Of a stretch of DNA of 64,000 bases, positions 48,829 through 49,037 are shown piece after piece. The first letter of the stretch is position 1. Each line of letters begins with the position of its first letter. Source of the DNA: Elusimicrobiota bacterium (GTDB lineage Bacteria > Elusimicrobiota > Elusimicrobia > Elusimicrobiales > UBA9959); NCBI GenBank assembly GCA_012517285.1, contig JAAYVG010000038.1:27091-91090 (forward strand), read 5' to 3'. A program made the translations under genes and the position numbers. The notes under the pieces are model-generated. The model did not search any database, had not been told where the DNA came from, and was given only the letters and a program-made list of their open reading frames with translations.

Positions 48829-48891
48829 AAAAAAAGAAAGACCCGCCGATTTGTGCATAGCCTTGCGGCCAGAGGCCTGGCGGGTACTGTT
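48829..48891 (-). ncRNA. Structured small RNA 2 upstream of Abi_2 gene
   Basis: Minus strand TACCCGCCAGGCCTCTGGCCGCAAGGCTATGCACAAATCGGCGGGTCTTTCTTTTTTT: ACCCGCC/GGCGGGT closing stem (48841-48885) plus U-tract; own promoter. Confidence 0.7.
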
Positions 48892-48897
48892 AAATAT

Positions 48898-48927
48898 ATT
48901 ATAGCAGAATAAAAGTATGGTCGTCAA
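48898..48927 (-). promoter_or_regulatory. Sigma70-type promoter for small RNA 2 / abi
   Basis: Minus strand TTGACG-N18-TATAAT. Confidence 0.75.
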
Positions 48928-48940
48928 TAGCAATTCCGGA

Positions 48941-49002
48941 GATAAAAATGCCCACCGAAAATGCGCACTGGCCAGAAAGTTAGGAGGCGTGGCGGGCTTA
49001 TT
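48941..49002 (-). ncRNA. Structured small RNA 1 upstream of Abi_2 gene
   Basis: Minus strand GCCCGCCACGCCTCCTAACTTTCTGGCCAGTGCGCATTTTCGGTGGGCATTTTT: GCCCGCC/GGTGGGC closing stem (48950-48997) plus U-tract. Confidence 0.65.
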
Positions 49003-49008
49003 ATTAAT

Positions 49009-49037
49009 ATTATAGCAAAATGACGATATCGCCACAA
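49009..49037 (-). promoter_or_regulatory. Promoter for small RNA 1
   Basis: Minus strand TTGTGG-N17-TATAAT (weak -35, consensus -10), just after the hsdM stop. Confidence 0.55.

What the first reader, a model, noticed from the sequence alone, without database searches (positions are those of the whole stretch)
48829..49037. Tandem pair of promoter-driven, structured small RNAs upstream of an Abi_2 gene inside a type I R-M locus
Between hsdM and the Abi_2 gene are two similar units on the minus strand. Each has a TATAAT -10 with a -35-like hexamer, a short RNA closed by a 7-bp stem, and a U-rich tract. Unit 1 is GCCCGCCACGCCTCC...TGGCC...TGCGCA...TCGGTGGGC-AUUUUU and unit 2 is ACCCGCCAGGCCTC..TGGCC...TGCACA...TCGGCGGGT-CUUUCUUUUUUU. 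The outermost pair is G-C in one and A-U in the other, a compensatory change, and another pair is G-U versus G-C. The second U-tract runs straight into the GGAGG ribosome-binding site of the abi gene. Established knowledge: conserved structured RNAs (an 'abiF' RNA motif) have been reported next to Abi_2/AbiF genes, and type III toxin-antitoxin loci use repeated RNA antitoxins with a terminator before the toxin gene. The inference is an RNA-neutralised Abi toxin with two non-identical antitoxin copies.
Basis: partly seen in the sequence, partly recalled or inferred. Interest (0 to 1): 0.88.

Follow-up and report, generated by a model that had tools for sequence, protein, structure and literature searches.

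The report
Twin abiF antitoxin RNAs before AbiF
Inside a bacterial DNA-restriction gene cluster sits a probable self-poisoning anti-virus gene (AbiF) preceded by two small hairpin RNAs of the known abiF family, the kind that hold this poison in check; the system is known, but two copies with separate promoters, the second apparently turning into a plain switch-off hairpin, is an unusual arrangement.

Summary
Both units (window 48950-48997 and 48841-48885, minus strand) are abiF RNAs (Rfam RF03085). Rfam itself scores them below its cut-off (31.8 and 15.8 bits against 37). A covariance model built only from relatives finds both at E about 1e-7, far above anything else in the window. The gene downstream is a genuine AbiF: Pfam Abi_2 at 1e-55, and the only solved relative by sequence and by fold is the PbAbiF-ncRNA complex 8VZ6. 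Both catalytic residues are present (RNICDH, R203/H208). Abi proteins neutralised by such RNAs were described experimentally in 2025, and AbiF inside restriction operons in 2013, so the core interpretation is a known system.

What is less ordinary: each copy has its own promoter. The same order (canonical RNA first, altered copy next to the gene) recurs in two other genera of the same family, where the gene-proximal copy has lost the conserved bulge and is a plain terminator hairpin. RNA bulge type follows the AbiF tree (9 changes; shuffles average 30), and unit 1, not unit 2, carries the type of the window's AbiF clade. I infer that unit 1 is the main antitoxin and unit 2 mainly the promoter-attenuator of abiF-hsdS-hsdR. 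Some relatives keep the RNA without AbiF.

The parts
49032..49037 (-). unit 1 -35-like hexamer TTGTGG (weak)
   Evidence: read directly; 17 nt from the -10; too weak for the consensus scan
49009..49014 (-). unit 1 -10 TATAAT with extended TG
   Evidence: read directly; same layout before the RNAs of relatives
48950..48997 (-). abiF RNA unit 1 (canonical: inner stem CGC/GCG, spacer CAUUUUC)
   Evidence: R1 34.7 bits, E 8e-8; Rfam RF03085 15.8 bits
48943..48949 (-). unit 1 U-rich tail AUUUUUA
   Evidence: read directly
48922..48927 (-). unit 2 -35 TTGACG
48898..48903 (-). unit 2 -10 TATAAT with extended TG
   Evidence: leader ATAATATAT..GTACCCGCC shared only with G003 and G006 apart from one 3-mismatch match
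48841..48885 (-). abiF RNA unit 2 (inner stem GGC/GCA with G.A mismatch, spacer CAAAUC)
   Evidence: R1 33.8 bits, E 1.4e-7; Rfam RF03085 31.8 bits, E 6e-4
48829..48840 (-). unit 2 terminator U-tract CUUUCUUUUUUU
   Evidence: read directly
48824..48828 (-). ribosome-binding site GGAGG of abiF
   Evidence: read directly
47927..48817 (-). abiF (Abi_2, HEPN RNase toxin candidate), 296 aa, R203-N-I-C-D-H208
   Evidence: Pfam PF07751 E 1.5e-55; PDB 8VZ6 E 1e-41 by sequence, TM 0.80 by fold
49047..50879 (-). hsdM with N-terminal HTH
   Evidence: Pfam N6_Mtase, HsdM_N, HTH_3
46750..47922 (-). hsdS; ATG 4 nt after the abiF stop codon
   Evidence: Pfam Methylase_S; start read
45779..46741 (-). zinc-ribbon-like plus nucleoside-deoxyribosyltransferase/TIR-like protein
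   Evidence: Pfam PF05014 weak, PADLOC TIR effector 3e-10
42895..45765 (-). hsdR
   Evidence: Pfam HSDR_N, SWI2_SNF2

Best explanation
This is an AbiF module of the RNA-antitoxin (type III-like) kind carried as cargo between hsdM and hsdS of a type I R-M operon. The AbiF protein (a HEPN RNase dimer) would be toxic when free and is held inactive by abiF RNAs of about 55-60 nt. Shown by sequence comparison: the RNA family, the protein family, the conserved structure and position, and the tandem promoter-RNA layout. Inferred: unit 1 is the main neutralising RNA, made as a separate short transcript from its own promoter; unit 2 is mainly the promoter and intrinsic terminator that keeps abiF (and the hsdS-hsdR genes read behind it) at low read-through level, with at most secondary antitoxin activity. 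When phage takeover of the cell stops RNA synthesis or disturbs the operon, the short-lived RNAs would fall first and AbiF would cut RNA and arrest the cell, backing up the R-M system. The confidence given is for the AbiF-RNA module; for the division of labour between the two units it is about 0.4.
For: RNA family: a model from relatives only finds both units. Of 80 AbiF loci from many phyla, 60 have the RNA at E<=0.01, and every listed match of that search lies just upstream of abiF on the same strand. A blind RNAalifold of upstream regions chosen mainly by AbiF phylogeny returns the same 7+3-bp structure with compensatory pairs. Protein: PF07751, closest PDB entry 8VZ6 by sequence and by fold, both catalytic residues kept. 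RCd22/AbiFCd experiments: toxicity, neutralisation by the RNA in cis and in trans, direct RNA-protein binding. Positive control: the phiC2 copy of that RNA scores 37.6 bits with Rfam and 18.5 with R1, against 34.7 and 33.8 with R1 for the window units. Division of labour: spacer class follows the AbiF tree, 9 changes against a mean of 30 in 300 shuffles (minimum 26), and the window AbiF groups with proteins whose RNA has CGC/GCG and CATTTT or CAACC, as unit 1 has. In G003 and G006 the gene-proximal unit shares unit 2's leader and lacks the bulge. abiF stop is 4 nt from the hsdS start.
Against: Unit 2 keeps the CAAAUC bulge and scores better with Rfam than unit 1, so it may bind AbiF as well as unit 1. 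AbiF phylogeny around the window is weakly resolved (support 82-89) and the window's branch is long. No expression, toxicity or phage data exist for this organism. The triggering step is inferred from other type III systems; the RCd22 study itself could not show phage defence.
Confidence: 0.85

Rival explanations
1. Two equivalent RNA antitoxins: both units neutralise AbiF and the duplication only raises dose, or lets each subunit of the AbiF dimer bind one of two different RNAs.
For: Both units score about equally with R1; RCd22 carries two motifs and mutating the stem of both abolishes activity; PbAbiF binds two RNAs per dimer.
Against: Unit 2 has the G.A mismatch, prefers another fold (-20.2 against -16.1 kcal/mol for the canonical one) and belongs by its leader to a class that lost the bulge in G003 and G006.
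Confidence: 0.35
2. Unit 1 is a scar of an earlier AbiF module in this cargo slot; only unit 2 serves the present abiF.
For: The hsdM-hsdS slot turns over: relatives with HsdM at 60-78% identity carry AbiF, an AAA_14/DUF4143 ATPase, an AlbA protein, other ORFs or nothing there. G003 keeps an RNA beside a truncated abi; G225 keeps only the RNA before hsdS. In L035 the upstream RNA is of the spacer class of another AbiF lineage.
Against: Unit 1, not unit 2, has the RNA type of the window AbiF's clade; the same two-unit order recurs in three genera; unit 1 is intact with promoter and U-tract.
Confidence: 0.2
3. Plain tandem transcription terminators between operon genes, with no antitoxin role.
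For: Each unit is a GC stem followed by U's; class-B copies in G003 and G006 are plain hairpins, one of them before an unrelated ATPase gene.
Against: Conserved bulge, inner stem and CA start of the spacer across many phyla, just before AbiF; spacer type follows AbiF phylogeny; homologue proven as antitoxin.
Confidence: 0.05
4. The region is coding (the 80-aa ORF 48814-49056 on the minus strand).
For: An open frame exists.
Against: The RNA region is conserved as structure with variable-length loops and compensatory changes; ORFs overlapping the related RNAs encode unrelated peptides.
Confidence: 0.01

Closest known systems
AbiFCd / RCd22 of Clostridioides difficile phage phi027 and phiC2 (PMC12373285)
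   Same: Abi_2/AbiF HEPN protein (34.7% identity over 97%, phiC2 copy) with the RxxxxH residues; preceded by an RNA with two abiF motifs, promoter, terminator, then abiF
   Different: There one promoter makes one RNA with both motifs and a separate terminator hairpin; here each motif has its own promoter and itself ends in a U-tract. There the host element is a prophage lysis module, here a type I R-M operon.
PbAbiF-AbiFr complex, PDB 8VZ6 (Zilberzwige-Tal et al., Cell 2025; known here through PMC12737573 and the PDB entry)
   Same: Closest solved structure by sequence (E 1e-41) and by fold (TM 0.80)
   Different: 28% identity in the fold alignment; the paper itself was not held, so its locus layout was not compared
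abiF RNA, Rfam RF03085
   Same: 7-bp outer stem, unpaired A, 3-bp inner stem, 6-7-nt 3' bulge, position before abiF
   Different: Both window units score below the curated cut-off; two separately promoted copies
PrrC/EcoPrrI (anticodon nuclease in a type Ic R-M locus)
   Same: HEPN RNase gene embedded in an hsd operon, possible back-up defence (PMC3710099, PMC12707154)
   Different: PrrC is held by the R-M complex itself and has an ABC NTPase; AbiF is held by RNA and has none
ToxIN / type III toxin-antitoxin systems
   Same: Repeated RNA antitoxin, terminator, then toxin
   Different: Unrelated toxin fold and RNA fold (as stated in PMC12373285)

Membership tests
abiF RNA (RF03085) | Curated Rfam score of 37 bits | tested here: not met
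   31.8 and 15.8 bits. The cut-off also misses other AbiF-linked RNAs, e.g. L153 at 34.3 and L218 at 26.1, and only just passes the proven phiC2 RNA at 37.6.
abiF RNA (RF03085) | 7-bp outer stem, bulged A, 3-bp inner stem, 3' bulge starting CA | tested here: met
   Unit 1 fully; unit 2 with one G.A mismatch in the inner stem
abiF RNA (RF03085) | Independent statistical match to AbiF-linked relatives | tested here: met
   E 8e-8 and 1.4e-7 with a model free of window sequence
abiF RNA (RF03085) | Lies directly upstream of an Abi_2/AbiF gene | tested here: met
AbiD/AbiF (Abi_2) protein | PF07751 over the cut-off | tested here: met
   188.8 bits, cut-off 25.6; PADLOC AbiD 3e-81
AbiD/AbiF (Abi_2) protein | HEPN catalytic R and H | tested here: met
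   R203, N204, H208 invariant in 45 sequences; counterparts R202/H207 needed for AbiFCd toxicity
RNA-antitoxin (type III-like) TA system | Toxicity of the protein and neutralisation by the RNA | not testable with these tools
   shown only for the homologue
RNA-antitoxin (type III-like) TA system | Repeated RNA before the toxin with a terminator between | tested here: met
   (terminator inferred from stem plus U-tract)
R-M guardian such as PrrC | Embedded in an hsd operon | tested here: met
   hsdM-abiF-hsdS-hsdR; abiF stop 4 nt before hsdS
R-M guardian such as PrrC | Activated when the R-M enzyme is inhibited | not testable with these tools
   no data

The most novel reading that the evidence does not exclude
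After duplication the abiF RNA has split its two jobs: the distal copy stays the neutralising antitoxin, while the proximal copy turns into a dedicated promoter-attenuator that sets the output not only of AbiF but of the hsdS-hsdR restriction genes behind it. The window's unit 2 is then an intermediate (inner stem broken, bulge kept) on a path completed in G003 and G006. Solo copies such as G225's would be co-opted leaders or protective leftovers.
Probability: 0.4. Interest if true: 0.6.

Novelty: new variant of a known kind. Interest (0 to 1): 0.45.

Why it matters
AbiF and its RNA are held to be the ancestors of Cas13 and its guide RNA (PMC12373285, PMC12737573). A natural series, from one RNA doing both jobs through a duplicated pair to a pair with one bulge-less partner, in the same operon slot of related genera, makes it testable how an antitoxin RNA can be freed for another role. 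It also shows that Rfam's abiF cut-off misses probable true members.

Tried and rejected
Single-protein scan of genome contigs found nothing confirmed; the profile scan did. Hand selection of the motifs for model R1 required pairing, so the 100% pairing and the shuffle results are partly circular; I rely instead on position, on the window test with no window sequence in the model, and on the blind fold. Promoter consensus hits alone are at chance and are not used as proof. The RNA is not intrinsic to this R-M family: of 16 genomes with the same HsdM family at 60% identity or more, only those with AbiF plus G225 showed it (two contigs end too early to tell). An association of tandem RNAs with R-M loci (window, G003, G006, L035, L044 all have hsd genes adjacent) is suggestive only, as three of the five share a family. 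Weinberg et al. 2017 and the Cell 2025 paper were not held, so a published tandem case cannot be excluded.

Full report
What is there. The Abi gene ends 4 nt before hsdS, and hsdS, a deoxyribosyltransferase/TIR-like gene, hsdR and a YgjP-type metallopeptidase gene follow on the same strand. The genome (1.96 Mb, 97% complete) has one Abi_2 gene and only these two abiF RNA matches.

Identity of the RNAs. Rfam's abiF family RF03085 matches both units but below its cut-off (31.8 bits for unit 2, 15.8 for unit 1, cut-off 37). I collected 80 AbiF loci from GTDB genomes with a 45-sequence profile, took RNA motifs from 17 of them, and built a covariance model with no window sequence. It finds both window units at E 8e-8 and 1.4e-7, with the best unrelated stretch at 9.5 bits. 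Over 1 Mb it finds an RNA in 60 of the 80 loci at E<=0.01, just upstream of abiF on its strand, and in 12 of 43 viral contigs at the same level. As the 17 motifs had been chosen by pairing, I also aligned fixed upstream windows of 24 loci picked mainly by AbiF clade; RNAalifold recovered the same outer and inner helices with compensatory changes at three pairs. As a positive control, the experimentally proven antitoxin RNA region of phage phiC2 scores 18.5 bits with the model and 37.6 with Rfam, so by the model the window units are better matches than the proven one.

Identity of the protein. Abi_2 at 1.5e-55, PADLOC AbiD 3e-81, and by sequence (1e-41) and predicted fold (pLDDT 95; TM 0.80, E 1e-16) a single solved relative: PbAbiF bound to its ncRNA. 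The HEPN motif RNICDH is intact, and the matching R and H of AbiFCd are needed for its toxicity.

Known background. AbiFCd of C. difficile is toxic and is neutralised in cis and in trans by RCd22, an RNA with two abiF motifs, through direct binding; breaking the stems abolishes it, compensatory changes do not. PbAbiF binds one RNA per monomer, and bulge nucleotides inhibit its RNase. Abi2/AbiF genes embedded in R-M operons were noted in 2013. In my sample, 10 of 38 AbiF loci with wide flanks lie between hsd genes. So the finding is in essence a member of a known system.

What is unusual. Only two of the 80 sampled genome loci (L035, L044) carry a second model match upstream of abiF, 190-240 nt away with its own promoter-like sequence; a strict promoter-hairpin-U scan found none in the 80 with two units (it also misses L035 and L044, so this is a lower bound). 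In the window's family, G003 and G006 have the window's layout inside the same R-M operon (HsdM 77-78% identical, AbiF only 32-36%). There the distal unit is canonical and the proximal one lacks the bulge. The proximal class shares a one-base-longer leader (AGTACCCGCC or CTGTACCCGCC) with window unit 2 and with a copy ahead of an AAA_14/DUF4143 ATPase in G003, and a further copy sits alone upstream in G006. Window unit 2 thus looks like an intermediate: class-B leader and the GGC/GCA inner change, bulge still present. In RCd22 too, a plain hairpin follows the motifs as terminator.

Which RNA serves AbiF. Spacer class maps on the AbiF tree with 9 changes; 300 shuffles gave 26-33, mean 30. The window AbiF falls with L012, L013/G018, G015, G003 and G006, whose canonical RNAs have the CGC/GCG inner stem and CATTTT or CAACCG spacers. 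Unit 1 (CGC/GCG, CATTTTC) fits; unit 2 (GGC/GCA, CAAATC) does not. This is the main reason to name unit 1 the cognate antitoxin; the clade's support is moderate (82-89).

Cargo slot and solo RNAs. Among 16 genomes with this HsdM family at 60% identity or more, the slot after hsdM holds AbiF with RNA (window, G003, G006, G015, G018), other genes or hsdS directly, and in G225 only the RNA, 60 nt before hsdS, with no Abi_2 gene found in that genome. Promoter-borne RNAs without Abi_2 also occur in G193 (two), G230, G299 (weaker promoter) and G014 (before Fic and an hsdR-like gene). They are either remains of lost AbiF modules or RNAs kept for regulation or protection.

Verdict. Observation confirmed; interpretation right in kind (RNA-held AbiF), doubtful in the equality of the two RNAs. 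A new variant of a known kind with a testable division of labour.

Noticed in passing
L208 (G225:C4:180819-180866), L209/L176 (G014), L210 and L180 (G193), L212 (G230), L175 (G299): abiF RNAs without any Abi_2 gene found in the genome; G225's sits exactly between hsdM and hsdS, G014's before Fic and an hsdR-like gene.
   Followed up: partly
L149 (G003:C81), reverse-complement positions 7531-7567: A bulge-less class-B promoter-hairpin element, nearly identical to the one before abiF in the same operon, stands before an AAA_14/DUF4143 ATPase gene.
   Followed up: partly
window 47922-49047 and L216, L219, L220, L222-L225, L227: The hsdM-hsdS junction of this R-M family is a cargo slot: AbiF, AAA ATPase, AlbA-type, YhcG-like and ORF6N-like genes alternate there while HsdM stays 60-78% identical.
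   Followed up: partly
window 45779-46741: Protein with N-terminal zinc-ribbon-like cysteines and a C-terminal deoxyribosyltransferase/TIR-like domain between hsdS and hsdR; more than 5500 relatives, also in G003 and G006 in the same place.
   Followed up: partly
window 49047-50879: HsdM carries an N-terminal HTH_3 domain, so it may regulate its own operon.
   Followed up: no
window 51428-52564 (+): SoFic-like Fic adenylyltransferase gene divergent from the R-M operon; Fic genes also flank abiF RNA or AbiF loci elsewhere (L209, L063, L072).
   Followed up: no
L035:7657-7698 and 7900-7953: Two abiF RNAs of different spacer classes before one abiF; the upstream one has the class of other Magnetococcales AbiF (L049, L064).
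   Followed up: partly
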